From: Arenicola marina
Taxonomy: Eukaryota > Annelida > Polychaeta > Arenicolidae
Length of the DNA stretch: 64,000 bases
Direction: 5' to 3'
Assembly: GCA_964019135.1 (NCBI GenBank)
Contig: OZ025257.1
Span: 25,404,352-25,468,351, forward strand
Made by a program: the position numbers and the translations under genes. The notes beneath the pieces are model-generated. The model worked only from the letters and a program-made list of their open reading frames with translations. It had not been told where the DNA came from and did not search any database. The stretch's first letter is position 1, and every line of letters starts with the position of its first letter. Below, one piece after another: positions 2,349 to 59,000 of this stretch.

Positions 2349-4229
2349 TTACTCACATTCCATGTCTACCTCTTCACGCAAGTCAATACATGCCCGCTTT
2401 TCAGGCGGGGCATCTGATACAACAGGACTCAGGCGCTTATTTTTACCTGAGATACCTAGGGCGGGTAGGATATCAATGGGGATGCTGAGAGGTTGCAGCT
2501 CATGGGGATGGTAGATAACTGCTTCGTCAGCGAGAGGGCGCTTACGCTTAGGTAGTTTGAGACACTTGGTACGATATCTTCGGTACAAGCAGCAAGCGAG
2601 TACCAGAATCGTTATCATTACAGTGACTATAGTGCAGATGGTGTACACACTCTGATTACGACTAAAGGCGTAATATGGGATAATAGGTACCTTATTCAAT
2701 GGTATAGGGACGGAATCTGGAAGGAGGCCATCTTCAATATCGTCTAGGATTTGAATTGCTATGGCCTTGGGGATGGTGATTGTTAGATTCAGATGAATCG
2801 GGCGTTTGGGGTACTGATAGGACGTGTTAGAGGTCGTGTAGAATATTGAATGGATGAACCAGTCATGAGTGCGTAGGACGCACGGGGCGCTTATTGTGAC
2901 GATGTGGGTTCCTCGGGGGAGACTTACCCTACGTTCTTCCTCTCCAGGACAGTTGTAACGGGCGGTCTCTCCGTGGGTCACCACAGCGTAACGGTTAGGC
3001 CCTATTTCTTGGATGAGTGACTGAGCAGGTTTGGGGCTGATTTGGAAAGGACAGTGACCAAACTCAGCTGCATTGTGGGTGATCAATCCACGGAGGCACG
3101 AGGTCATGGGTGTCCTGAATACCGGGGAGTTATGACAAACCATGGGATGATTCCCCATACACAGAGTAGGCAGGATAACATCTCCTGTCTCGGTATTTAT
3201 CACAAAGGAAGGTGGCACCTTCAACTCTATCGTTACATTGGTCTGTTCCTCATACGGAACAGGCCACGTGAAAATATGATATTGGCGATAACGTTCCGTG
3301 CTTATCAATGGCAACGAAGCGCGAAACAATACTCGTTCCGCACTGACATATACAGGATACACAATAACATGCGCGTAATACCATAACGTGGATAACATTT
3401 CTAAATCATATTTTTGCACCGCCTGAGCGATTAACTGCAGTTCTGCAGGCGGCAGGTTTTCATTCGTCAAACGACCCATTTCGACTGTTGTTCGCAGTCT
3501 ACTAAAATCATGCTGTCGTTTTTCGTTAACCATAGCAATATCTTCAATAACACCAAAGATTATCTCGATTTGCATGTCGAGCTCCAACTTGCCTACACGT
3601 TGATCCAGGTCTTGGATGTTTCGTCCAAGCCGATTGTTCATAAAGTCCGTAACTTTGCTTACGTAACTCGTTAGACGTTCAATCTGTCGTCGATGGTTGA
3701 GTAGATCAGCTCGCGTTCGGTTCACGACTGTCACGAGGTTGTCAACGACGTGGATGACAGCGGCCTGCTGTTCGGCAGTGTGCTGCATCATAGCGTTCAT
3801 CTGCTCGACCTGCGCCTCGGTAGCAGTACCGAAGAGAAAGTTGAGCACATCTCCACCGAAGTTAAGAAGTCCACGTTTGGAGCGGTGCAATACATAAGGC
3901 CGATTGAGTGTCGTCAGATCGTCCAGACGACGTAACCACATCGTGAGACTGGTATTGTCTCCGATGTCGTGAAGACTCCGATAGGCGTATAGTTGGCTGC
4001 GTAGATCGAGGAGTAGAGTGTTGATCTCCTCGGTACCGGACGGAGCGTCAAATCCCATCAGCACTGTCCACTCGCCAGCTTGATGGCGAACAGGCGATGC
4101 GTCAGAGACCAACACACCGTCAGTCAGAGTTTCGATGCCCGGTTGCGCAATTACCACAGTGGTGAAGCACAGGATGAGCAATAGGCATCGACCTGCATGC
4201 CGTCGGGTGACCCTGGTCGTTTGATCCAT
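2349..4229 (-). CDS. env: Envelope fusion glycoprotein (F/errantivirus-type)
   Basis: A 626-residue membrane protein. A hydrophobic signal sequence covers about residues 14-29. RSKR at 116-119 is a furin-type cleavage site, and the next 16 residues are a Gly/Phe/Leu-rich fusion peptide, as in baculovirus F and insect errantivirus envelopes. Residues 136-215 have heptad-like hydrophobics suggesting a coiled coil. The ectodomain carries six cysteines between 357 and 450 and N-glycosylation sites (for example 92, 170, 331, 468, 481). A transmembrane helix lies at about 528-549, followed by an 80-residue basic-then-acidic cytoplasmic tail. The start ATG lies within the end of the pol frame (79-bp overlap, different frame), so a spliced mRNA is likely. 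The frame is intact. Family-level assignment is firm; fusion activity is inferred. Confidence 0.88.
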   Translation of the reverse strand: MDQTTRVTRRHAGRCLLLILCFTTVVIAQPGIETLTDGVLVSDASPVRHQAGEWTVLMGFDAPSGTEEINTLLLDLRSQLYAYRSLHDIGDNTSLTMWLRRLDDLTTLNRPYVLHRSKRGLLNFGGDVLNFLFGTATEAQVEQMNAMMQHTAEQQAAVIHVVDNLVTVVNRTRADLLNHRRQIERLTSYVSKVTDFMNNRLGRNIQDLDQRVGKLELDMQIEIIFGVIEDIAMVNEKRQHDFSRLRTTVEMGRLTNENLPPAELQLIAQAVQKYDLEMLSTLWYYAHVIVYPVYVSAERVLFRASLPLISTERYRQYHIFTWPVPYEEQTNVTIELKVPPSFVINTETGDVILPTLCMGNHPMVCHNSPVFRTPMTSCLRGLITHNAAEFGHCPFQISPKPAQSLIQEIGPNRYAVVTHGETARYNCPGEEERRVSLPRGTHIVTISAPCVLRTHDWFIHSIFYTTSNTSYQYPKRPIHLNLTITIPKAIAIQILDDIEDGLLPDSVPIPLNKVPIIPYYAFSRNQSVYTICTIVTVMITILVLACCLYRRYRTKCLKLPKRKRPLADEAVIYHPHELQPLSIPIDILPALGISGKNKRLSPVVSDAPPEKRACIDLREEVDMECE

Positions 4230-7200
4230 TTTGATTTCTTGGGGTCTTCACACGGTGTGTCTTCTTTTAGTTCAAGTAGTTTTCTCTTGTCAGCCTGTCG
4301 TGTTGCTCGTCCTCTGATGAAGCGAACTCTCAATGAGTTGGGTTGGAGTTCCGCAGTTGTGAACTGTTCTGGTCCTGGATGCACAAGTGAAGGTTGGTAA
4401 GACCGTTCGGTCTCTTTATATGCTTGGTCAGGGTAGGCGGAGTCGTCACTCCTCCTACGCTTCTTCGCTGCAGGGGCATCGTCGCCTGTGATTGGCCATC
4501 CCCATCCTCTCTTCTCATTGGTCGGTCGTCCTGGCTCCTCATTGGCCGACGCCGGCATCTCGTCTGCTGAGTCATCTTCTCCTGACTCCGGATGACTGCC
4601 AACAGGTCCTCCTGTGGTGGGAACGCCTTTTCGCTGGCCACGTGCCAAGGCCGTTCTCTCGTCATCGATCAATTCCTCCTCTCCTGCTGCTGGACGATTC
4701 CCTCTACGAGGCCTCTCGGGAATATGGTCCCAGCAGATATCAGGATCCACTAGCTTAAGGCGTCCGCGATGGATTACCTTAGTCTTGCCAGTTCGTTGAT
4801 TCCGTAACCAATGGGTTGTACCCGTGATCCTCGTGATCACGAATTTCGGGTCCCATCTTGTTGTCAGGGGCTGCCTGGCGCCGTTCAGCACTATGACAGT
4901 GTCACCCACCTGAAAGTCCTTAGCATTGGCCTTTTGGGCCAACCTCTCCCGATTATACTTGCGGCTCTCACGCGTGTGCTCTCGAGTTAGTTTTAACGCG
5001 ACAGCCAGATTATCTAAGCGGTTTCGGAACGCGTTGTGGCCACTGGTGAGACAGCGCGAGAGGGGGATACGCGGCTGTCTACCGTACATCAGAAAGTAAG
5101 GACTATACCCAGTCACGGAACTGGTTGCGATTCGATAGCTGAGCAAAGCATCTGCCAATTTCTCTTCCCAATTAGTTAATCTATTATTAACCAATTTGGC
5201 GATGAGACGTTTGAGCGTTTGGTTGAAACGTTCAATTTTTCCATTACTTTGAGGATGGTAGGGGGTCGTCCTTACGTGTTTAATGCCTAATTGACCCAGA
5301 TAATTCGTGAACTCGCCAGCGCAGAACTCGGTACCATTATCGGTAATTAAAACTTCTGGTACCCCATGTCGCGGCAAGTACCACTGGGCAAACGCATTCC
5401 ACACTTCATAGTTAGATTTATTCCGCAAAGGCAAGGACTCCACCCAACCAGAGCAATGGTCTATAATGTTCAGGCAGTACTTACTGCCTTCTTTGCTCTC
5501 AGTCATGGGACCGATAAGGTCCATCGCAATGATTTGCGTCGGATAACTAGCAATGGGCATCTCACCCATCGCAACTCTATCTCTCCGACTACTGTGCACA
5601 CGGCACGTCGCACATAGTGATAACCTCACTGTTACACTTTTCTTCATTCCAGGCCATACGTAAGCATCGCGCACTCGATCAAGCGTTTTGGCGGTTGACA
5701 TATGGCCAATTTCTTGGTGAGCCCTATCAATAACTTTGTCCCTGAAGGCGGAGGGTAAGACTAGTCGAGGGTATACTTCTGCAGTTGGGGTAGGGCGATA
5801 AATACTATATAGGAGGTCACCCAGCTTCATGTACTGACTATCATCTTCATCGACTTTTTCCAATAAGTCACTAAACTCGGTTAACTGCGCTTTCTGTATT
5901 TCTATCCTGTCTAGACCGTCTAGCTCTAGAGGGAGCCTCTCATCACTTTCTTCATCATTGAAAGCTTGGGGATCTAACCATTCCTCCGTATCCATTATTG
6001 CTATGTGAGATTCATGGCTGCATTCGGGCGTTATCCTTGATAACATGTCAGCACGAATGTTGTTTTTGCCTTTTCTGTATTGAATTTTGGCGCCATATTC
6101 GGCAAGAAGCACTGCCCATCGTTGGATTTTAGTGTTATCCATATTCTTAGTAAAGAGTGACAACAATGGTTTATGGTCTGTGTAGACCGTGAAATCAGCA
6201 CCATAAAGGTAGGGACGTAGTTTCGTTAGTGCATAAACTACTGCATATGCTTCTTTTTCGATTGTAGCCCAGCGTAGCTGTGGCCCAGATAGTTGATGGC
6301 TGATATATTGGATCACTTTCTCGTGACCATCGTGTTCTTGAACCAAAATGGCCCCTACTGCGTATCCACTCGCGTCAGTAAAGAGTTTGTAAGGTTGATT
6401 TATCACAGGGAAAGTTAATACATGTCGGGAGCAAAGTAGGGTTTTCAGGGTTTCAAAGGCTTTATCTTGTTCTTCCTCCCATAACCACGTTTGGTTCTTT
6501 CTAGTCAACTTCACTAATGGTTCTGCATGGAGGGCATAATCAGGGACACATTGTCGGTAGTAGCCTGACATTCCAAGGAACGATCTTACCTGTTTTACTG
6601 TACGAGGGGGTTTCATGTGTTGGATTGCTGCGACTTTGTCAGGGTCACTGGTGAACCCATTTTCATTAATGATGTAGCCTAATAGTTTAATTTCTTTTAA
6701 ACCGAATGCACATTTTGAGGGTTTTAGTGTTAAACCTGCTTCTCGTAAACGGTCAAATATCATTTGAAGATGTTTGGGGTGATCTGCTGGATTTTTGGAG
6801 AACACTACGATATCGTCGAGATATACAAAGGCGCACATTCCAATCAATCCATGTAACACATGATCCATGATTCTTTGAAAAGCCGAGGGGGCGTTTACTA
6901 GCCCGAATGGCATCTTAGTAAATTCAAAGAGGCCTTTGTGGCATCGAAAAGCTGTCTTTGGGATGTCTCTTGGCGCTACAGGGATTTGCCAATAACCTGT
7001 CTTTAGGTCAAGGGTGGAGAATATGGTACTGCCACCCATCTGGTCAAATATATCCTGTATTTGGGGAAGGGGATATTGATCTTTAATCGTGATATTGTTT
7101 AGCTTCCTATAATCGACACAAAATCGTGTAGTGCCATCTTTCTTAGGAACTAACGTAATGGGGGAGCTCCATGGTGAGGACGAGGGTCGAATGACTCCGT

Positions 7201-7285
7201 CAGTTAGCATTTTATCAATTTCCTCCTCTATGATTTGTCTTTTTGTAAGGGGCATTCTATAGGCTTTTTGGCTAATTGGGGGACC
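4151..7285 (-). CDS. pol: Pol polyprotein: reverse transcriptase, RNase H, integrase
   Basis: Numbering is from the Met at 7255, although the frame is open from 7285 and is continuous with protease except for a TAG. The RT keeps the DLKTGYWQ region and YLDD (145-148). RNase H has TDAS (D293), E333 and D360. Integrase has the H513-H518-C548-C551 zinc site and catalytic D579, D639 and E675 with D-35-E spacing, then a GPY/F-type domain around 785-860. There is no chromodomain; instead a 170-residue charged tail with a KKRRR patch (possible nuclear signal) runs to the stop. The order RT-RNase H-integrase defines Ty3/Gypsy. All catalytic residues look intact. The 3' end overlaps env. Confidence 0.93.
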   Translation of the reverse strand, partial: GPPISQKAYRMPLTKRQIIEEEIDKMLTDGVIRPSSSPWSSPITLVPKKDGTTRFCVDYRKLNNITIKDQYPLPQIQDIFDQMGGSTIFSTLDLKTGYWQIPVAPRDIPKTAFRCHKGLFEFTKMPFGLVNAPSAFQRIMDHVLHGLIGMCAFVYLDDIVVFSKNPADHPKHLQMIFDRLREAGLTLKPSKCAFGLKEIKLLGYIINENGFTSDPDKVAAIQHMKPPRTVKQVRSFLGMSGYYRQCVPDYALHAEPLVKLTRKNQTWLWEEEQDKAFETLKTLLCSRHVLTFPVINQPYKLFTDASGYAVGAILVQEHDGHEKVIQYISHQLSGPQLRWATIEKEAYAVVYALTKLRPYLYGADFTVYTDHKPLLSLFTKNMDNTKIQRWAVLLAEYGAKIQYRKGKNNIRADMLSRITPECSHESHIAIMDTEEWLDPQAFNDEESDERLPLELDGLDRIEIQKAQLTEFSDLLEKVDEDDSQYMKLGDLLYSIYRPTPTAEVYPRLVLPSAFRDKVIDRAHQEIGHMSTAKTLDRVRDAYVWPGMKKSVTVRLSLCATCRVHSSRRDRVAMGEMPIASYPTQIIAMDLIGPMTESKEGSKYCLNIIDHCSGWVESLPLRNKSNYEVWNAFAQWYLPRHGVPEVLITDNGTEFCAGEFTNYLGQLGIKHVRTTPYHPQSNGKIERFNQTLKRLIAKLVNNRLTNWEEKLADALLSYRIATSSVTGYSPYFLMYGRQPRIPLSRCLTSGHNAFRNRLDNLAVALKLTREHTRESRKYNRERLAQKANAKDFQVGDTVIVLNGARQPLTTRWDPKFVITRITGTTHWLRNQRTGKTKVIHRGRLKLVDPDICWDHIPERPRRGNRPAAGEEELIDDERTALARGQRKGVPTTGGPVGSHPESGEDDSADEMPASANEEPGRPTNEKRGWGWPITGDDAPAAKKRRRSDDSAYPDQAYKETERSYQPSLVHPGPEQFTTAELQPNSLRVRFIRGRATRQADKRKLLELKEDTPCEDPKKSKWIKRPGSPDGMQVDAYCSSCASPLW

Positions 7286-7288
7286 CTA
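7286..7288 (-). other. In-frame TAG between protease and RT
   Basis: The minus strand reads ACT TAG GGT CCC CCA with homology to the usual protease-RT linker on both sides. Either one nonsense mutation disables this copy, or the stop is read through to set the level of RT. The following G is favourable for suppression, but no structure was verified. Confidence 0.85.
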
Positions 7289-7825
7289 AGTATGGATTTC
7301 CATCGGTATAAGGTTACATATTCCTGCTTGTTCTGTTTTAGAGGAGAATATATCTTCATTTTCCTGCACTACGTTTTCTATGTCGCTATCACCGATCTGT
7401 GGCATTGCCTCATCAAATCCATATATCGTGGAGAGGTCCAGATCAGTTCTCAACGCATACATTTTTCCAAACCACTCTAACTGTTTCTGTCTAATATCAA
7501 TTTTGGCATCACCTGCCTCCAACATATCCTGTCCTAGGATCATTTCCTTGTTGATATGATCATCATTAACAACAATCACTTCCTGCGGGATTAAGACTTT
7601 GTCTATCTTAATGCTGGCCTTCCCAACGGGTCTAATTACTTCGCCTGACACAGTCTTGATCGAGTTAGCGCGCTTAAACACCGTAGGGCGCCTTCTGGCC
7701 TGGAGATACTGGCGGAATTTTCCATGTCGTAATACGCTACAACTCGCTCCTGTGTCTAACAAGGCATTAACCCGAACACCGCCAATGGTAAGGGCAACGG
7801 ATAGACGGCCCGTCGTAGCGTACAC
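7286..7825 (-). CDS. Retroviral-type aspartic protease with linker to RT
   Basis: This frame carries LLDTGASCSVL, the catalytic aspartate motif of retropepsins, near its start, and ILGQDML about 85 residues later, matching the second conserved protease stretch. The first codon is GTG, not ATG, and the frame continues upstream through CTA into the gag slip site, so it is expected to be made as a Gag-Pro fusion by -1 frameshifting. The frame ends at TAG (7286-7288), but the RT frame resumes in the same phase at the next codon. The residues on both sides of the TAG read like an uninterrupted gypsy linker. Confidence 0.85.
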   Translation of the reverse strand: MYATTGRLSVALTIGGVRVNALLDTGASCSVLRHGKFRQYLQARRRPTVFKRANSIKTVSGEVIRPVGKASIKIDKVLIPQEVIVVNDDHINKEMILGQDMLEAGDAKIDIRQKQLEWFGKMYALRTDLDLSTIYGFDEAMPQIGDSDIENVVQENEDIFSSKTEQAGICNLIPMEIHT

Positions 7826-9009
7826 TAGTTTTTTGGCTTTGCACCGTACTGTGCGCGGTTTGGTTGAGAAGAACCCTGTCTTTCTCTTTCATCTATTTTG
7901 CCCTTTCTCTCAGTGGCATATTGTTTCCGCGGCATATAGTTTCGAGGGCCTGACCCATCTCGGTCCCGAGCGTATGACGCATCTTTCGGACGCCTACACT
8001 CCCGCCTAACATGGCCCAACTGTCCGCAATTAAAACATTTTGGTCGAGAGCACTCGCGGATCAGGTGACCTGACTGTCCGCAATTGTAACACCGGGGTGG
8101 AGGTCGGTCATTACGGGCACTAGCAAAGGCACTTACCGGTGGGTGGGTCACGATGTCCAGTGCTCTTGTGTTCGCCTGTGTCTTCTTTTCAACCTGGTTC
8201 AGCTGGTGCTTGATGTCTCCCAGCCTGGCGTCGAGTCTCTCCATGACTCCTGCAATGGTGCCTACCGCGTCCACTTCCATGGGTGCTTCCATTCGGGACG
8301 TCTCGGCGCGACCCAATCGTTGAAAACGGTCGGTGGCGTTGATGAAGGTCCTCACCCATTGTATGGCCTGATCGATCGTGGTGACGTCCGGGCGGCTAAC
8401 CACACGACGGCACAGGTCAGCGTTCTTAAGCCCTCGTAAGAAGGCTTGCAGCAGGATTCTCTGCTGATCCGGATTGTTCGCATATGAGGGGTATGCATCG
8501 GATGCCAGACTTCTAAACCGCACAATATAGTGCTCTTCAGGTTCATACGCCTCCTGCTTTACCACATCGATCTCGGCGCGTTTGCGCGCGGCTTCTTCTC
8601 CTCCGAGAAAGATGGCAAGTACCTCTTTCTTTATGTCGACCCAAGGCACTTGATCTTTCGCCACGACGTGCTGTTGAGCGGTGTTCGTGATGTATGTGTC
8701 CAGCTCTCGTCGAAGAGGACCCATCGTGGTCCTTTTCAGGATGGGGTGAACGTTCACGGCATTGTCATTGTTCACCACATCCATGTCCGCAATCCATTTG
8801 CGCACCAGGTCACGGGTGCTACCATCACACGGGGTCATAGAGTGGAGGATGCCCTGTCTTTCTTCGGAACCCAGTTGGACCGCGGTCCATCGGGCCAAGA
8901 GTTCTTGTAACTGTTTTTGATTGGCCTTATACGCCAGGGCTAACATTTGATCGGCGGTTACATTCGGAACTGCAGGCCCCGCCATATTAACATCATCGTC
9001 CCCCGCCAT
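7825..9009 (-). CDS. gag: Gag nucleocapsid/capsid polyprotein
   Basis: The frame opens at a GTG (9036), but the first ATG is at 9009 with an excellent context (ACCATGG), giving 394 residues. The middle contains a retrotransposon gag capsid-like helical region (W-rich, with the EEHYIVRFRSLA block). Two CCHC zinc knuckles of the form C-x2-C-x4-H-x4-C follow at about 307-320 and 325-338, ahead of a basic tail. Zinc knuckles bind genomic RNA during particle assembly. The stop lies immediately after a frameshift slip site leading to protease. The frame is intact. Confidence 0.92.
   Translation of the reverse strand: MAGDDDVNMAGPAVPNVTADQMLALAYKANQKQLQELLARWTAVQLGSEERQGILHSMTPCDGSTRDLVRKWIADMDVVNNDNAVNVHPILKRTTMGPLRRELDTYITNTAQQHVVAKDQVPWVDIKKEVLAIFLGGEEAARKRAEIDVVKQEAYEPEEHYIVRFRSLASDAYPSYANNPDQQRILLQAFLRGLKNADLCRRVVSRPDVTTIDQAIQWVRTFINATDRFQRLGRAETSRMEAPMEVDAVGTIAGVMERLDARLGDIKHQLNQVEKKTQANTRALDIVTHPPVSAFASARNDRPPPRCYNCGQSGHLIRECSRPKCFNCGQLGHVRRECRRPKDASYARDRDGSGPRNYMPRKQYATERKGKIDERERQGSSQPNRAQYGAKPKN
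7828..7834 (-). promoter_or_regulatory. -1 ribosomal frameshift slippery heptamer A AAA AAC
   Basis: The gag frame reads CCA AAA AAC TAG. The heptamer A AAA AAC is in the correct phase, directly before the gag stop (7825-7827). A -1 slip places ribosomes on CTA GTG TAC, the protease frame. This is one of the strongest known slip sequences, used by several retroviruses for gag-pro. A downstream pseudoknot was not tested. Confidence 0.8.
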
Positions 9010-9047
9010 GGTAATGACGTTGGGAACCGTATACACGAGTTAAAGTG

Positions 9048-50699: not shown

Positions 50700-50821
50700 G
50701 ATGGGTGTATTCTGAACCGAAGCTCTCCTTTAAGTAGGGCGCTAAATAACCTTGCCGTATCGCCACACTGTGAAGGTTTAAGATTGAGAGGAGCCATGGC
50801 TCCGGGCATAAACCCCTACTC
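50700..50821 (-). mobile_element. Second SINE-like repeat, body part (split by the LINE)
   Basis: This is the distal half of a repeat whose tRNA-like head is at 55933-56078; removing the LINE and one copy of its target duplication joins them. It includes the palindrome GGAGCCATGGCTCC (50791-50804). The far boundary is uncertain. Confidence 0.4.
50808..50821. repeat. LINE target site duplication, left
   Basis: ATAAACCCCTACTC, identical to 55919-55932. A 14-bp perfect duplication is typical of target-primed reverse transcription. Confidence 0.88.
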
Positions 50822-51061
50822 ACGTGATTGTTAGCAGGCAGGCAACGCTCTGTTAATGCTCTCAATTTGACGAAGGTTGTCACTAGATATCTTTTGGATA
50901 ACTACACCAGTTTGGTATCATAAGAAAGCTTGCGACTTTGTGATCAAGAAGCACCGGATATTTTGGTAAACCTCATAGGGCTTTTTGTGTTATTTGGTTT
51001 TTTTTGGCACAAACTCTTGTTTCCTATGCACAGCAGTTTTTTCGCTTCACTGCACATCACC

Positions 51062-52488
51062 ATGGATTCACTGGAGTGGAACGGGGAACATAGCGTGTAC
51101 CATATTTTCTTCAAGGATATTGACTACACTTCGGCAGCCAAGCTCGACGACCAGCGAGAGCCACTGAGCACCTATTCTGTGTGTGAAAGTATCAGGAAGG
51201 CGATTGGCACTGGCAAGATCATAGGTGCCCAGACACCAGATCCATCCATGAAGGGTTGCTGGCGTCTGTACGTGAAAAACAAAGCAGCTCGTGCTGAACT
51301 GCTCGTACGGAGAGAGCTGCGGCTGGGCACCATCACCGTGCCGCTTTATGACGCTAATCCCTACGTTACAAAACAGAATACGCCTGAGGAACTCAGAGAG
51401 AAAATTACCATAAACTTCCTTCCAATGTCAGTCGAAGGTGACGAAATCAAGAAGTATCTTGAGGAAAAACAAGTGAAACTGAAAACTGACGTTAAATACA
51501 GCCAAGCAAGAGACCCAAATGGCCAATTAACTGAGTACATAACCGGCGATCGATATTGCTATGCGGAGGCACCCGTCCACCCCTTACTGCCACGGGTGGC
51601 CTGGGTGGCAGGACTGCGCTGCAAATTCTTTCATGATGGCCAGTATAACAACCGCTGCAAAGCATGTGATGGAGTGGAACATAAGGCCGGACATGCAGAT
51701 TGTCCCGCTAAGAACTCAGAAGAAAACGTCACCGCTTTCCAGGGGCATCTTATGGTGCTGTCAAACATGCACAACTGCGATCTCAGTGCGTATGGGCACA
51801 CCTTTGACAGCGTTGAAAGAGCATTTCAGTGGCGTAAGGCGGTACTCAACAACAACCCGGATATCGCGAAACTGAGCAGTGGCAGCAGCAGCGTGAAGCG
51901 GAAATGCTTCATCTCATCAGCCTTAACGTTCAGCAGAGCGAAGCCTTCAAGAAAACGCTTCTGGATACGAAGACACTCATGGCGGAGGCAACTAGAGACA
52001 ATTTCTGGGCCTCAGGCCTGAATCCGGACCATACCAAGTCTACCAAAGTGTCCTTCTGGCCTAGGCAAAATCTGCTAGGAAATATCCTTATGCAGACAAG
52101 GGATGAGTTGCGAAGTGTCATCCGCGAGCCCACTGAAGGCAGCCAGGAACAACCTCAGGATGAGACATCTTCTGATAATATCAGCGCGTCTCAGGGTGTT
52201 GCTGAAGCTGCTGAAACCCGCCAAAGTGACTCCGAAGAATGCCATGACAGAAGAGGTTGCGGCGAAAATCGTCAACCTCCAAATTGCGCTCATCGGAGGG
52301 CAGCCACAAGCTCCGGCCAGCGGGGTCAGAAGACTACGAAGTCAGGAGAAGACATCACACGTTTCCTCCGCAGCGAAAGAAACCGGTCAACCACGCCAAA
52401 ACGGAAGCCAACCAGCTCTCCAGGAACTGACACAGAACAACGTAAAAACCCGAGAAAGGATGGCGCGGACAATGGACACATCAGTTAG
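51062..52488 (+). pseudogene. LINE ORF1: RNA-binding protein with zinc knuckle and NADAR-like domain (frameshifted)
   Basis: The start chosen is the ATG at 51062 (CACCATGG); the frame is open further upstream from a TTG. Residues 60-165 look like the RRM-type region of Tx1-like ORF1 proteins. A C-x2-C-x8-H-x2-C knuckle lies at about 199-214. From residue 230 a NADAR-like domain begins (LSNMHNCDL, then SVERAFQWRKA). Near 51870 the coding frame moves from frame 2 to frame 1, with perhaps 20-25 residues lost, and the domain resumes (EAFKKTLLDT, AEATRDNFW, QNLLGNILM). The frame-1 tail to 52488 is basic and disordered and ends in a normal stop. Function in the element is unknown; ADP-ribose chemistry is inferred from the family. 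Confidence 0.75.
51749..52116 (+). other. NADAR-like domain in two frames
   Basis: NADAR (YbiA/DUF1768) proteins cleave N-glycosidic bonds of ADP-ribose-type substrates, and some remove ADP-ribose from guanine in DNA. The visible signature comprises the LSN start, the S-V-E-x-A-F-Q-x-x-K-A helix, the L-L-D-T...E-A-T-x-D-x-F-W block and the W-P-x-Q-N-L-L-G-x-x-L-M end. In this copy the Gly usually found before Q-N is Arg, and the W-G-x-G turn is W-A-S-G. A frame change near 51870 splits the domain. The signature was recognised by eye. Confidence 0.75.
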
Positions 52489-52670
52489 CACGATATAGTG
52501 GGCGACCGCTGTTACCCCAAAGCTGAAATGGAAAATTTTACCCCGGACTTTCGAAAACGGTTTGAGAAGGTAAAAATTTGAAACAGCTATCTACATGTCA
52601 AAGTTGGATACTATATATAAACAAATCGGAATATATGTGTCGATAAAGCAACATAGCTATATTACTGCTT

Positions 52671-53453
52671 ATGAAGCGAGTATTTTACTGGCTAATATAT
52701 ATTTATATGAAACTAAGCGTTCTTACCTTAAACTGCCGAGGGCTTAGAAACAGCTGTAAACGACGCACAATATTCAGTTTCTTACAAGATAAGCGCATTG
52801 ATATCGCTTTCCTGCAGGAAACCCATGTTACATGCGAGTACGAAACAATATTTAAGAGAGAATGGGAAGGCATATCTCTACATAATTTCTCATCGTCCGC
52901 ATATAGTGAAGGTGTAACCATTCTGTTTCGCAAAGACATTAAAGTAGATATTGTTAATGCACATAGAGATGATAATGGCAGAAAACTATTAATTAACGCG
53001 AGGATAGATGATGAGGAATTGTGCCTGGTTTGCGTCTATGCACCAGACAAACATAGAACGGAATTCTTAAAACGACTGTCAACCTGGGTCACGTATTATG
53101 CCTGTAATCAAAATAAGATAATTATGGGGGGCGATTTTAACAGTGTATTTGAGAAAAGGGACAGGTCATCAGGTTTGCTGGACTATACAAGTACTTTCAT
53201 GGATAAATTTGTAAAGAACATGAATATTGTAGACTCCTGGCGGTCACAAAATCCGACAGAGATCGGGCATACATTTATTAGTCCTGCGAGAGATGGGTGC
53301 ATCAGCAGAATTGACTATGTCTTTATGTCATCAACGCTGCAAGAGAAGATAAAAGAAGCAACTGTTGTTACTGCACCTGTACCAGATCACATAGGGGTTT
53401 ATGTCTCCATGAGGGTGACCTCCAAAAAACGAGGAAAGGAGTATGGCAGCTGA
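52671..53453 (+). pseudogene. LINE ORF2, APE-type endonuclease domain
   Basis: Begins with K-L-S-V-L-T-L-N-C-R-G-L (Met at 52707 is the likelier start; 52671 is an earlier in-frame one). Conserved blocks of the exonuclease-endonuclease-phosphatase fold follow: LQETH, the GGDFNSV block, RIDYVF and a P-D-H close to the end. This nuclease nicks the target to prime reverse transcription. The domain itself is intact. A frameshift near 53435 stops it prematurely; the next part of ORF2 continues in another frame to 53737. Confidence 0.85.
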
Positions 53454-53788
53454 ATAATAGGCATCTTAAGGATGAGTCGTTTGTTGCGAATATTAAATCT
53501 GTAATAACGCAGACAACAAGCGAATACGAAGAGCTGGTTTCGAAGTACCTGCTGTGGGACCTAATCAAATTAAGGCGTAAAGAATTTCCTATCGGCTATA
53601 GCATCAATACGTGTAGAACCACTGTTTCGAAAACCCAACGTCTGGAGGCTGAAATAGCAAGGCTAGACTGCCGATTGGCTATAAAATATGATGATAATAC
53701 GTCTAATTTGAGAAGGGATCTGGAAAAACGAACTTGATGAAACATATTTGCTCAGAGCTAAAGGTGCACAAGTCCGAGCACGTGCCAA
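53436..53788 (+). pseudogene. LINE ORF2, endonuclease-RT linker (frameshifted)
   Basis: The ORF2 product resumes in frame 2 from about 53438 ('V-W-Q-L-N-N'), stops at 53735-53737, and resumes once more in frame 0 ('L-D-E-T-Y-L-L-R-A-K-G-A'). At about 53790 the typical 'R-A-R-A-K-W' block runs straight into sequence that should be some 200 residues further on, so RT motifs 0-2 and the finger region are deleted. Confidence 0.65.
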
Positions 53789-54465
53789 GTGGATAGAGTC
53801 ATTGAGCATGCGGAAAGACATAATACTTCAGGTTTTTTGTTATTTTTAGACTTTAAAAAAGCTTTTGACACGGTCCGGTGGAATCCAATGTTACAAATTC
53901 TCAAAGCCGTCAACTTTGGTGATGGTTTCATACGGTGGATAGAGACACTGTATAGCAACCCGACCATTCGGGTCAAAAACAACGGTTATCTCTCAGAGCC
54001 GTTCGTAATGCAAAGGGGAATTCGTCAAGGATGCCCTGTATCAGCACTTCTTTTTATCCTTGTAGTGGAGATACTCGGCATAACAATTAGGGAAAACGAC
54101 AAGATAAAAGGATACTTTGTAAGATTTAAGAAATCTCAGATGAGGATTAAGATCTCTCAATATGCAGATGACACAACCTTATTCTTGGAAAGTATAGAAG
54201 ATATGAGTATCGCCTTGGAAGAAATAAGTAGATGGTCTGGCATTGCTGGGCAGCCGTGCTGATTCTAGATAAAACAGTTGGCATGTTTCTAGGGGCTCAA
54301 AAGGAGCTAGAAGGTACTTTTCGTGGTATCAAATTTACCAAAGAACCAATAAAATTCTTGGGTATATATGTTGGCTACGACAGCGCGAGGTGTAATAGCT
54401 ATAATTGGTACATGAAATTGGATAAGATAGAATCACAAATAACACAATGGCAAAAAGGCATATGA
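53789..54465 (+). pseudogene. LINE ORF2, reverse transcriptase remnant
   Basis: Keeps the palm motifs: FLDFKKAFDTV (first catalytic Asp), RGIRQGCPVSALLF and QYADDTTLF (the Asp pair). A frameshift near 54250 moves the product to another frame (L-D-K-T-V-G-M-F-L...), then F-L-G-I-Y-V-G. The N-terminal RT motifs are missing through deletion. The active centre could be recognised but not functional. Confidence 0.85.
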
Positions 54466-55253
54466 CAATGTTTGGAAAAGTGTCTGTAATCAATGTTGCA
54501 CAAAACTGTGTGATGTCCTCCGACTTCGCTCACAAATTAAACAAGATACTATATGGTTTCATTTGGGGTGCCAAAGATAGAATCAAACGAAATGTCCTGA
54601 TAAACAGCATAAAAGAAGGCGGGATTGGAATGGTGGACGTAGAGTCTCATTATCGTGCAATTAGATTGTCATGGGTGAAACGTCTCTTTCATCCGGGTAA
54701 TGAAACATGGAAGTTAATAGGAACACACTATTTGGAATTCTTTGGCAATAAATTTGCATGCATGTTATTCAAGGGTATCAATGCCAAAAAATTGCCACAG
54801 ATCGACGACCTACCAGCATTTTATCAAGAATTGTATGTATTTTATGGTATGGTGAACGAGTTTAAAGGTAAAGAATGTGTGCGAGATATTACAGAGGAAT
54901 GTATATGGGGTAACACAGGTGTACAAATAAATAGAGGTAAGCGTCTCAACTGCATCTTTTTCAGGTCATTCACCGAAAGTGGTATATGGTTCGTAAAAGA
55001 TTTGCTAATAGGCAATTGCCAAATAAGTGAAGATTTCATTTTACAAAAGGTCAAGCGCAAAGTGAATATTGTATCCGAGATATATATATTGAAAAATGCT
55101 CTCAAACATCATGTTATAGGTGATCTTCAAAACGTACCATGTAATGATGGTGATAATTTAAATGTGTTTACTAGTGATGAAAACACTTTCTTAACTACCA
55201 AACAACTATATGGACTATTTACACGGATGAAGGCCACTAGGTCGAAGGTTTAG
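54447..55253 (+). pseudogene. LINE ORF2, thumb and connection region
   Basis: Resumes after another frameshift near 54460 with the post-RT region, including N-K-I-L-Y-G-F-I-W-G and the G-G-I-G-M-V-D block typical of L1/Tx1-like ORF2. A short deletion is likely near 54510, where two conserved blocks lie closer than usual. It ends at a TAG (55251-55253); the same protein continues after a few codons in another frame. Confidence 0.78.
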
Positions 55254-55268
55254 AAAAAGCTTATAAAG

Positions 55269-55772
55269 GTGATTCACTGTGAAATCATTGACTTCTCTTT
55301 AGTGTATGAGAGGAAAATCGTACAATTTGTCGACAAGAAACTTGCAGAATTTAACGATAAAGTACTAAACTTGCAACTGCCGTGTAATAAGAATCTAAAG
55401 TTATGGGGTAAGCAAACTGAAGACAAGTGTACACATTGTGGTGGATTACATGATATCATGCACCTAATTTATGACTGCCCTCATGCACATGCAATGTGGG
55501 ATATAACTAGCAGATCATTAAGTCGCAGCATTAATATTCGTGATGTTATAATTGAAGTCCCAGAAAGTGATTACAACCTTTTGTTCTCGACGATCGCGTA
55601 TTTATTATATAAAGAATGGCTTCTCTCGAACACTGGTAGACTGGAACACCAAATAGATTGCCGGACTTTCTTTATCACGGAACTAGACTATAAAAGTAAA
55701 ATACTAAAACATATAAGAAAGAGCAGTTCTGCTGCATCTTTACTCACAACAGTTAAAAACGCCTTGATATAG
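55269..55772 (+). pseudogene. LINE ORF2, C-terminal zinc knuckle region
   Basis: Contains L-W-G-K-Q-T-E-D-K-C-T-H-C-G...H...C, the C-x2-C-x7-H-x4-C motif found at the end of many LINE ORF2 proteins (the zf-RVT type), followed by about 90 residues to the normal stop. The knuckle is thought to help bind template RNA. Confidence 0.82.
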
Positions 55773-55918
55773 AACGTGCTGATATATTTTTCATGTGTTG
55801 CTTTTAACTCAGTGAATATATAGATTACTTGAATGTATTGCATGAATTTTGTACTTATGTATGACCTCTTGGCAATAAAGAAATAAATAATTAAAGAATT
55901 AAGAATAAAGAAAAAAAA
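55773..55918 (+). other. LINE 3' UTR and A-rich tail
   Basis: About 145 bases with several AATAAA words, ending in AAAGAAAAAAAA just before the target duplication. An A-rich end fits target-primed integration. Confidence 0.8.
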
Positions 55919-55932
55919 ATAAACCCCTACTC
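55919..55932. repeat. LINE target site duplication, right
   Basis: ATAAACCCCTACTC, identical to 50808-50821. Confidence 0.88.
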
Positions 55933-56078
55933 TAAGGCGTGGGGCTCTTTAGTCCGGCAAAATCATTTGCACAGATGGGGTTCGAACCACTTACGCTTGG
56001 GCTAGCCTTGTAGTGGACTCTCTGTAATGCCTCTCCAATATCCGAACACGCTACCCACTAGACAACTGGGTGACCCCG
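55933..56078 (-). mobile_element. Second SINE-like repeat, tRNA head
   Basis: On the minus strand: CCCAGTTGTCTAGTGGGTAGC as the A-box region and GTGGTTCGAACCCCATC as the B box, but about 75 bases apart, wider than a true tRNA. The head differs from the other SINE family in this window. The LINE at 50822-55918 sits inside this repeat. Confidence 0.65.
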
Positions 56079-59000
56079 TATTGTACTAAGTATGTATGAC
56101 AACTACTATCCATTCACCCCCAAAATACCGTAATCCATTTACTCAAAAAAATAACGTAATCCATTCACTCACAAAAACACCGTAATCTGGCCTAGCAGAG
56201 CACCCTCGACCGTATAATCGAACGAGCTGCCAGCTAGATCACGGGACGATCAGCTGGGAAGAAGCAAGAGAGACAGATTTCCACTTGCATCTGTAATATA
56301 AACGGACCGATACGCGTTAATGCTATAGCCTATGTATATAAATCAGGTCATAATATATCGTGGCTTCATCAAACGGAGTTATGAACCAGCAACGCGCCTC
56401 ACTCGTATACAAACCTTGTCCTGAAAATTAAGATCATTTTATAATCATCAATGTCACAATGTTCGTGTTGCTGAGTGGTGTTCGATCAATATTACAAAGC
56501 GAATATTCAGCACGTAGTGCCTAGTGGGCATGTGTAACACCATAGACTACAATGGACACCTTGCTTGTATGCAGTCTCAGTCTCGTCGTTACCCCAATAT
56601 GAATGGTTCTCTTCCCATTGTTTCGTAATTGTAAACACGACTTCGACCAGAGCCTGCGTTACCATGACGACCACGTGGCCTCATAAAGACGAGTGACGCG
56701 TTTGAGTATACCGTTCAATATTTAAAAAAAAACAATTCACAATTCTACTTCTTAAGTCTCCTTTTTATCAAAACCTGGGGCAAGACTTGCCAGTGTCTTT
56801 CTCACTCGGCAAAGCAATTTGCCCTTTTCAATTCCATACATTGTGTTCTGTTTTCTTGCCAGGAAACAAGCTGCGGGCGAGCCAGCTTATTATTACAAAT
56901 TCGTAGCGAATAACATAAATATAATTCACGAACCTGGTGCTTTCCCTTCGTTTGAAACTTCAACTTGATGTCATGTTTTGTTTTGTCTCGCCTTATTCTC
57001 GGCTCCGTGAGGGGGATGCGGGAAGCCACACATGGTAACATGACATAAGAAGTTAAATTAGTAATAATATTTCTTGCCAATTAAAATAAAATCTGCGTTA
57101 TATGCTGCAATGGAAGATTAACAGTGACATGTAATAGGACTGCAACATTTAATATGGCACACACAATATTTCTGACTTGATTATAAGTTGAAAGTTTGAA
57201 ACTGAGTGTACTGCTTCACAGATTGGCGTGTAATTCACTGGTTCATTACACAGTTTCGTTCTTACACAAGTTGTTTTTTGTGTTACAATGATTCCTCTGT
57301 GTTGCAAATTCCGTGCGATCCTAGATAGCTGAAACAACATACACATAATGTGCTTTTGAAGTTAATTGCAAAGGTTTTTTTACGGTTTCCCATGTCGATT
57401 TGTCCTTTCTAAATCAGCCAACCCATGACCCATGACCGTAGCTAGTTTGATGGGGCAAAGAATTACAAGCATGAAATGTTACCGACGGTAAAAAAATTAA
57501 TTGACCCCATCAAATGTGGGCTTCAAACGGCTAGGCACGGCGTTGTGGCAAGCCTTAAAGCAACAAACAAGCTACACATCGACAAGCAGATTTCGTGAAC
57601 AAATCGTTGAATGTGACATGTGGATTACGGGCATGTTGGGTTTGAAAAATCCAAAATGGGTTGAAATAAATCAGGGAAATAAAAACGTTTTGACTGACCG
57701 AAAACGAGAAGAGCTTGTCCCCGATTGGTGGAAAAAAAATATTTAGATCGCACAAAGATAATCGATAATAGACTAGTAACCACACATAAATAGGTTTTAA
57801 CTTTGCATACACAACGCGCCCTCCGGATAGGCCAAAATGTAATTTAGATGCTAGCGATATATGTTAATCTGATTCACATGGGAATAACAGGTGATATAAT
57901 GGCGGCTCGGGCGCAATTCATTCCCCAGTGCCAGCCTTTGACTGCGCCTCGATCTATCCCAGTACGCCACAGCCAATATGAGCGAGACCCGACGAGACAG
58001 GGGTACTTATGCTCTACGTCCATGCTATGGCATCAATTGACCTGTGCTGCGTACCTTCTGGTGGTTGTTCGCCACCGCTCGTTTCACACAAAAATCGGCT
58101 AAAGCTGTCCTCGGATGCACACCTAACCATTGAAGTTTTGCTTAGGCCCACCGGTATATCAGAATGGTAAGGTGCATGTAATATATAAGGAGTGTCAGTG
58201 CATGTAATATGTAAGGAGTGTCAGTGTCAGGAGTGTCAGTGTCAGGCGAGCTGTTGTCAACCGTGAGAATAAATGGTAAAGCAGAATGTACACGCTAGGA
58301 AACGTCCATTTCTAGTGCCAGGCTGAGTTATCCCAATAATTCGTCATTAGTTCATTCACTATACTTAGTCAGCTGAAAACCTACCATCTTACCATATTAT
58401 TTCGTTATATTCGCCATCACGGATCAGTTTAGTTACGGCGGTGTCGATTTAAGACCCACTCTATTCTCGAAGTAACAGCTGCACAGCTAAATTTCTGCAA
58501 GCGGTGGCTACGCAATGACGCTCCTTGCATGGACTGATCAGGTGAGAGCAGTAGTGTTCTGTTTGTCGCAGAAGAACTGCGCATCCCAATGGTAACGATG
58601 ATATATTGTAACATTGGAATTGGGATAGACATGGTAACAACTTTATTCTAGGGTCACTCAGATTTTTCCAATTTGATTTGCACGTTTATCTATGTGCTCA
58701 CAGGTATTTACAATGTTTGAGTACTTACATTGATAGCAGTACGACATGAAACTTCAATGCTTCTTGCTTCATTGTTCATCTAGATTTAACCATTTCAAGA
58801 GGTGCAGTGATGTCTAAGAACAGAATTCGATGTAATTGTGCATTGTTATAAATTAAAATTGTAAATGCCCTGCCTAAAAAAAAATTCGATTGAAATTGTA
58901 ACTGGTATTACGTGTTCTACCTTATAAATTTGACTTTTAACTACCAATTGGAGTATGATGGGTGAATAATCGTTGGCACCAGTCCAACCTCTGGTCTCAT

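What the first reader, a model, noticed from the sequence alone, without database searches (positions are those of the whole stretch)
51749..52116. NADAR-like (YbiA family) domain carried by a LINE ORF1
The translated blocks LSNMHNCDL, SVERAFQWRKA, AEATRDNFW and QNLLGNILM, in that order, match the NADAR signature. They sit between the ORF1 zinc knuckle and a basic tail in an element with endonuclease-RT ORF2. NADAR enzymes act on ADP-ribose compounds, and some remove ADP-ribose from guanine. A retrotransposon carrying one could protect its nucleic acid from ADP-ribosylation or interfere with host NAD signalling. The role is inference. I cannot say from memory whether this fusion has been reported.
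Basis: partly seen in the sequence, partly recalled or inferred. Interest (0 to 1): 0.88.

Follow-up and report, generated by a model that had tools for sequence, protein, structure and literature searches.

The report
Jumping gene carrying an ADP-ribose enzyme domain
A dead copy of a jumping gene carries, inside its presumed RNA-binding protein, an enzyme-like domain that in other organisms strips ADP-ribose from guanine; related copies in the same genome keep this domain under strong selection, and this kind of fusion was reported in 2025.

Summary
Window 51737-52113 encodes a NADAR domain (PF08719, E 4.8e-13 for its second half alone) between the zinc knuckle and basic tail of ORF1 of a 5.1-kb L1/Tx1-type LINE with endonuclease, reverse transcriptase and a 14-bp target duplication. 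This copy is dead: against its 96.8%-identical sister it lacks 61 nt inside NADAR, which splits the domain over two frames, and ORF2 is broken too.

The own genome (867 Mb) has at least 150 NADAR matches (150 of 317 candidates scored). Ten of 20 loci fetched at 9.4 kb have both ORFs open. NADAR's nonsynonymous divergence is at or below that of ORF2 in five of six family pairs, with synonymous sites saturated or nearly so: strong purifying selection. Catalytic residues are kept in most copies read and lost in some.

The fusion itself is in print (oyster Tx1 LINEs, Ectocarpus Gypsy). A second ORF1 type in this genome (L1-ORF1p-like plus NADAR) and the selection test appeared in no paper my few searches listed. 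Best reading: an RNP-bound eraser of ADP-ribose on the element's nucleic acid. That function is inferred, not shown.

The parts
50808..50821 (.). 5' copy of a 14-bp target-site duplication
   Evidence: exact 14-bp direct repeat, (family D5), rechecked
50822..55918 (+). LINE insertion (5097 bp), dead copy, A-rich 3' end
   Evidence: bounded by the duplication; ORF1, EN, RT inside
51062..51655 (+). ORF1 N-terminal part, two RRM-like domains by homology
   Evidence: 55.9% identical to P0001 7-226; P0001 model has RRM folds at about 8-100 and 113-195
51656..51703 (+). CCHC zinc knuckle
   Evidence: pattern match CX2CX4HX6C
51737..51850 (+). NADAR, first part (frame of ORF1 start), with Glu43- and Lys50-equivalents
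   Evidence: 59% identity to P0001 228-264; residues
51851..51870 (+). junction region of the 61-nt deletion that splits NADAR over two frames
   Evidence: alignment to sister copy L131 places the gap near 51865
51871..52113 (+). NADAR, second part (other frame), with Trp89-, Arg93-, Glu125- and Trp133-equivalents
   Evidence: PF08719 E 4.8e-13 on 51838-52485; residues
52114..52488 (+). C-terminal tail with a KRK motif
   Evidence: KRK at residue 188 of window:51838-52485; tail identity 0.169 among relatives
52647..53450 (+). ORF2 AP-type endonuclease
   Evidence: PF03372 E 5.3e-15; L1 endonuclease 8sp5 1.3e-22
53762..54259 (+). ORF2 reverse transcriptase, N-terminal part missing from the match (profile 53-177 of 205)
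   Evidence: PF00078 E 4e-22; L1 ORF2p 8c8j 1.8e-19
54426..55250 (+). ORF2 continuation in another frame, no Pfam match
   Evidence: matches intact ORF2s of other loci (query RT2)
55254..55769 (+). ORF2 C-terminal part with zf-RVT-like zinc site
   Evidence: PF13966 E 8.6e-06, 26.8 bits, just under the 27.5 cut-off
55919..55932 (.). 3' copy of the target-site duplication

Best explanation
The window holds a dead copy of an L1/Tx1-type LINE whose ORF1 protein is built as two RRM-like domains, a CCHC knuckle, a YbiA-type NADAR domain and a basic tail. Shown: the architecture, related copies with both ORFs open in the same genome, and strong purifying selection on NADAR. Inferred: the RRMs and knuckle place NADAR on the element's own RNA or cDNA, and there it hydrolyses ADP-ribose from guanine. 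It would thus undo a host (or competitor) ADP-ribosyltransferase acting on the retrotransposition intermediate, or remove the mark at the insertion site. In lineages that lost the catalytic glutamates the domain would be kept only as a binding or structural module.
Against: No activity or ligand binding was tested. Among P0001-P0020, 9 of 20 lack Lys50 (Met 6, Phe 3) and 1 of 19 readable has Arg93. Twelve of 14 genomic loci of the window's ORF1 type have Arg at site 50; in E. coli C7 NADAR that change kept hydrolysis in vitro but no longer rescued cells from DarT1. Site 43 is also uncertain: E-to-A there had only a minor effect in vitro. Family L132 has Asp, Met, Val at the three sites and Leu at Trp133, and Pfam no longer sees NADAR in it. 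Five of the 45 readable genomic rows have Asp43/Ala125. L133 (525-aa family) lacks Trp89. Retention without catalysis suggests that binding may be the main role in some lineages. The host's own ADP-ribosyltransferases were not examined.
Confidence: 0.48

Rival explanations
1. The domain acts on soluble ADP-ribose derivatives or NAD-linked signals (or NAD-capped RNA) of a host antiviral pathway, as proposed for phage NADARs, rather than on the element's nucleic acid.
For: [quoted passage not shown] The fold and ribose-contacting glutamates are kept and do not discriminate.
Against: The fusion to RRM-like domains and a zinc knuckle in one polypeptide suggests placement on RNA; [quoted passage not shown]
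Confidence: 0.2
2. NADAR in ORF1 is a non-catalytic binding or structural module (nucleic acid, ADP-ribose on host proteins, or ORF1 assembly), with catalytic residues kept by fold constraint.
For: Lineages with lost catalytic residues keep the domain in long open frames: L132, the Ala125 set, Met50/Phe50 relatives.
Against: E, K or R, E remain in 40 of 45 readable genomic rows, and Glu43 in 19 of 20, Glu125 in 17 of 19 and Trp133 in 19 of 19 of P0001-P0020, whose identity to P0001 is 25-59%.
Confidence: 0.22
3. The domain is a neutral passenger or a mis-joined fragment of an unrelated host or bacterial gene in this one copy.
For: The window copy itself is split by a deletion and cannot make the protein. 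Against its sister, its ORF1 before the deletion has dN/dS about 0.5 (dS 0.053, dN 0.027), as expected for dead copies.
Against: Sister copy with NADAR read across the deleted stretch, many copies on many contigs, ORF1 plus ORF2 open in 10 of 20 loci, saturated pS with low pN between families, relatives from other sources with the same plan.
Confidence: 0.02

Closest known systems
NADAR in ORF1 of Crassostrea gigas Tx1 LINEs (Repbase families noted in PMC12477816, passages read)
   Same: LINE ORF1 with a YbiA-family NADAR domain
   Different: The passages that I read hold no selection test and no catalytic-residue analysis; figures and supplements were not seen. The ORF1 sub-type of those families is not known to me. 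The window's host was not identified.
[quoted passage not shown]
   Same: Retroelement-encoded NADAR, conserved within a lineage
   Different: LTR element, Pol instead of ORF1; the authors found almost only bacterial hits outside Ectocarpus
YbiA-type NADAR hydrolases (E. coli YbiA 2b3w, P. nicotianae NADAR 8bau)
   Different: Here fused between a zinc knuckle and a basic tail; sequence similarity is weak (P0001 against 8bau E 0.0047, against YbiA 0.038)
NADARs of nidoviruses, hepe-like viruses and annelid or bivalve picornaviruses (PMC9503650, passages)
   Same: NADAR within replicating RNA elements of invertebrates
   Different: Viral polyproteins with RdRp, not LINE ORF1
LINE-1 ORF1p (PDB 2yko)
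   Same: The second ORF1 type (P0021-P0026, P0028; 25 of 50 own-genome loci read) resembles L1 ORF1p over the coiled coil and RRM (profile A3, E 2.3e-6)
   Different: Mammalian L1 ORF1p has no NADAR (recalled)

Membership tests
NADAR (PF08719) | profile match above the curated cut-off | tested here: met
   window second half 50.1 bits against 35.1; sister copy 78.1 bits over profile 12-157
NADAR (PF08719) | YbiA fold | tested here: met
NADAR, YbiA subfamily | Glu at the position of P. nicotianae E125, with Glu43 and Lys50 | tested here: met
   window pieces E43, K50, E125; sister L131 the same
NADAR, DarT1-linked (BC4488) subfamily | Asp in place of Glu125 | tested here: not met
   Glu in the window
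NADAR | guanine-ADPr hydrolase activity | not testable with these tools
   needs protein
LINE of the L1/Tx1 group | APE endonuclease and RT in ORF2 | tested here: met
   best solved relatives are L1 endonuclease (8sp5), the entry named LTX (2v0r) and L1 ORF2p
LINE of the L1/Tx1 group | target-site duplication and A-rich 3' end | tested here: met
   Random 60-bp pairs of this window share a 14-mer in 27 of about 20,000 draws
Tx1 clade proper | RT phylogeny placing it in Tx1 rather than L1; clade-typical target choice | not tested
   no reference set of LINE RTs was built

The most novel reading that the evidence does not exclude
NADAR has been joined repeatedly to unrelated LINE ORF1 bodies: RRM-RRM-CCHC and L1-ORF1p-like coiled coil plus RRM (both in this genome), and a multi-knuckle gag-like ORF1 in P0053 (type by memory), besides Gypsy Pol and RNA viruses. 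This recurrence would mean that the hosts attack retroelement nucleic acid by guanine ADP-ribosylation, an undescribed branch of innate immunity for which CARP-1-like enzymes are candidate effectors, and that LINEs answer with a built-in eraser.
Probability: 0.22. Interest if true: 0.88.

Novelty: new member of a known kind. Interest (0 to 1): 0.56.

Why it matters
The physiological roles of animal NADARs are described as unclear (PMC11125620 passage); a nematode trans-splicing protein connected with a NADAR domain (PMC9303266, search listing only) is one lead. An enzyme domain kept under selection in recently moving LINEs makes a direct genetic test possible: does a retrotransposon need to remove ADP-ribose to move? 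A positive answer would show ADP-ribosylation of nucleic acid as a defence against transposons. The lineages with altered active sites give natural controls.

Tried and rejected
Rejected: chance match; passenger fragment; bacterial or phage contamination (duplication-bounded LINE in a 43-Mb contig, many genomic copies).

Led nowhere: IMG/VR scans with A2, A4 and P0001 found no relative; GTDB contigs with A4 none. With A5 the GTDB scan kept 80 of 528 bacterial NADARs, used as outgroup; one of its two search patterns contains Glu43 and Lys50, so their 80 of 80 at those sites is partly circular. A PDB search with the second half alone gave chance hits to protein A. The model of the L1-type ORF1 was weak (mean pLDDT 63.8) and was not used. 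NADAR tree of 74 rows (19 RRM-type, 7 L1-type, P0053, 25 others, 20 of the 80 bacteria, 2 solved): RRM-type plus P0053 97/88, L1-type with 8bau and six other proteins 98/86, RRM-type alone only 92/52, and the L1-type not one clade. The AU test does not reject one clade of all LINE NADARs (p 0.33), of both main types (0.323), or of the L1 type (0.471). Separate captures from hosts or bacteria are therefore not shown; exchange of the domain between LINEs is equally possible. Rfam (gathering) and ARAGORN found nothing in the window. Literature on LINE-1 and ADP-ribosylation and on shellfish pierisins could not be searched (time-outs 88, 89, 92, 93, 97, 100; paper reading 96; cap at 126). Of the 150 NADAR rows, 50 fetched loci were read, plus L131-L133. 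An earlier count said 22 of 27 L1-type; the right count is 23 of 27.

Full report
OBSERVATION. Pfam recognises NADAR in window:51838-52485 (E 4.8e-13, profile 81-163). The first half gives no PF08719 match alone in Pfam, but aligns 59% over 37 residues to the homologue P0001. ORF2 carries an AP endonuclease (PF03372 5.3e-15) and reverse transcriptase (PF00078 4e-22); the nearest solved relatives are L1 endonuclease, the entry named LTX, and L1 ORF2p. A 14-bp direct repeat (50808-50821, 55919-55932) brackets 5097 bp.

WHY THE FRAME CHANGES. The nearest genomic sister (C14, L131; 1378 of 1423 aligned nucleotides identical) reads NADAR across the break (residues 236-375, in-house E 4.4e-43). The window lacks 61 nt there. 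Relative to P0001 the gap is 67 nt (38 nt against 35 codons). The lost stretch corresponds to the helix written HAGEAK in P0001. The sister is itself imperfect: 4 nt are missing near the end of NADAR. ORF2 of the window is also split over frames, and its RT match lacks the N-terminal part. The copy is dead. Before the deletion, window and sister ORF1 differ by dS 0.053 and dN 0.027, in the second NADAR part by dS 0.251 and dN 0.071.

A SECOND ORF1 TYPE. P0021 has a different N-terminus. Its NADAR found P0022-P0053. P0021-P0026 and P0028 form profile A3, which matches L1 ORF1p 2yko (E 2.3e-6, profile 64-216) and NADAR 8bau (6.3e-24). Profile-profile comparison of the two types aligns NADAR alone. 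P0053 carries knuckles that I recall as I/Jockey-type gag, plus NADAR; that label comes from memory. P0021's NADAR is 48% identical to a YbiA-like protein of Pseudomonas phages.

THE OWN GENOME. PF08719 gave 150 matches, all over cut-off, with 150 of 317 candidates scored. Of 50 loci read, 14 have the window's ORF1 type, 7 a distant version of it (about 24-29% identity), 25 the L1 type, and 4 gave no N-terminal match. Of 20 loci of 9.4 kb, 10 have ORF1 and ORF2 each as one open frame: 664+1287 aa (L115, L117, L118, L119), 521+1247 (L123, L124), 497+1247 (L129, L130), 591+1244 (L111, L112); in the other 10 ORF2 or ORF1 is broken or shorter (stop-to-stop frames, start codons not checked). The two L1-type loci among these 20 (L126, L127) have broken ORF2, so no L1-type element with both ORFs open was seen. 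L115, L117 and L119 are 99.6-99.9% identical to L118 over 6.3-6.4 kb, so this family moved recently. Endonuclease sequence lies within the short flank in 18 of 27 loci L081-L107, of which 23 have the L1-type N-terminus. A search with the window's ORF1 gave 131 matches (125 of 287 candidates scored).

SELECTION. Between four ORF1 families (one copy each) NADAR pS is 0.73-0.89, at or near saturation. NADAR pN is 0.189 (664/521), 0.321 (664/497), 0.338 (521/497), 0.461 (664/591), 0.495 (521/591), 0.488 (497/591); ORF2 pN in the same order is 0.251, 0.412, 0.408, 0.487, 0.485, 0.488; the N-terminal part 0.173, 0.335, 0.301, 0.506, 0.517, 0.517; the tail 0.487, 0.589, 0.495, 0.599, 0.584, 0.614. 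So NADAR is at or below ORF2 in five of six pairs and slightly above in one, and above the RRM part in two. Within: window-type loci, 91 pairs, 59 saturated, 17 with dS 0, 10 with dS up to 0.02 (median dN/dS 0.59), 5 with dS 0.02-0.1 (median 0). Distant type, 21 pairs, none saturated, 7 with dS 0, 14 others with medians 0.12 and 0. L1 type, 28 loci (three of them without an N-terminal match), 370 pairs: 207 saturated, 17 with dS 0, 6 with dS up to 0.02 (median 1.15), 32 at 0.02-0.1 (0.34), 9 at 0.1-0.3 (0.45), 99 above 1 (0.30). Copies mutate freely after insertion, which raises within-family values. The searches favour intact frames, a bias that applies equally to NADAR and tail.

CATALYSIS. 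PMC11543638 (section 12 read in full) names E43, K50 and E125 of P. nicotianae NADAR, or their E. coli C7 equivalents, as the key positions; Lys-to-Arg kept activity in vitro but did not rescue cells, and Glu43-to-Ala had a minor effect in vitro. The window has E, K, E. P0001-P0020: E43 19 of 20, K50 11 of 20 (Met 6, Phe 3), E125 17 of 19 (His 2), W89 20 of 20, W133 19 of 19. P0021-P0026 and P0028: all three in 7 of 7; P0053 also. Genomic rows: 52, of which 45 readable at all three sites; 40 of 45 have E, K/R, E (Arg in 12 of 14 window-type loci); five (L091, L093-L095, L100) have Asp43/Ala125. L133 of the 525-aa family has E, R, E but no Trp89; L132 has Asp, Met, Val and Leu at Trp133, still matches the in-house profile (E 7.3e-26) but not Pfam. 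Hydrolysis is plausible in most lineages read and lost in a few.

MECHANISM. Shown: architecture, recent copies with both ORFs open, selection, mostly kept active-site residues. Inferred: RNA-bound ORF1 carries a guanine-ADPr eraser that protects RNA or cDNA. The clam Meretrix lamarckii has a guanine-N2 ADP-ribosylating enzyme, CARP-1 (cited in PMC11543638, passages). The authors of PMC11543638 state that NADAR reversal of that mark is assumed, not tested. The window's host was not identified here.

LITERATURE. PMC12477816 (three passages read) reports NADAR in Ectocarpus Gypsy Pol and, from a Repbase query, in ORF1 of several C. gigas Tx1 LINE families, with a possible role in processing RNA intermediates. 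Searches with NADAR+retrotransposon, NADAR domain, DUF1768+retrotranspos+LINE, Tx1+Crassostrea gigas+ORF1+LINE, NADAR+ORF1+LINE, and YbiA+transposable elements listed, by title and abstract start, no other report of a LINE NADAR; most listed papers were not opened, searches showed only the best few, only PMC-licensed papers are covered, and later searches failed. PMC9503650 and PMC11125620 were read in passages, PMC11543638 in passages and one section.

VERDICT. A known kind since 2025, with real additions: a second ORF1 architecture in the same genome, direct evidence of selection, and natural active-site variants.

Noticed in passing
window 2352-9039, minus strand: LTR retroelement with gag-like ORF (CCHC, 7828-9039), a 1044-aa open Pol frame (RT, RNase H, integrase, 4154-7285) and a 632-aa frame matching Baculo_F fusion protein (2352-4247). 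Described only.
   Followed up: no
window 55933-56082, minus strand: By eye, a tRNA-derived SINE-like stretch with A- and B-box-like motifs beside the LINE's 3' end; the LINE may have inserted into it. ARAGORN and Rfam (gathering) report nothing.
   Followed up: no
L091, L093-L095, L098-L100 (5 of 7 on contig C19, 26.8-27.5 Mb): A set of NADAR copies, 6 of 7 with L1-type N-terminus, with Ala at the Glu125 site and Asp at Glu43 where readable.
   Followed up: partly
L132 (G000:C17:25154100-25155950): ORF1 family of the window's plan whose NADAR has lost all three catalytic residues, yet sits in a 497-aa open frame, with a weak endonuclease match after it (E 0.00045, under cut-off).
   Followed up: partly
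G000:C2:38385911-38386933: Two NADAR matches in tandem, each reported in an 862-aa open frame, possibly a host gene or a duplicated ORF1 domain.
   Followed up: no
L118 ORF1 tail: The 664-aa ORF1 tail holds a tandem repeat with a 45-bp period (self-offset matches).
   Followed up: no
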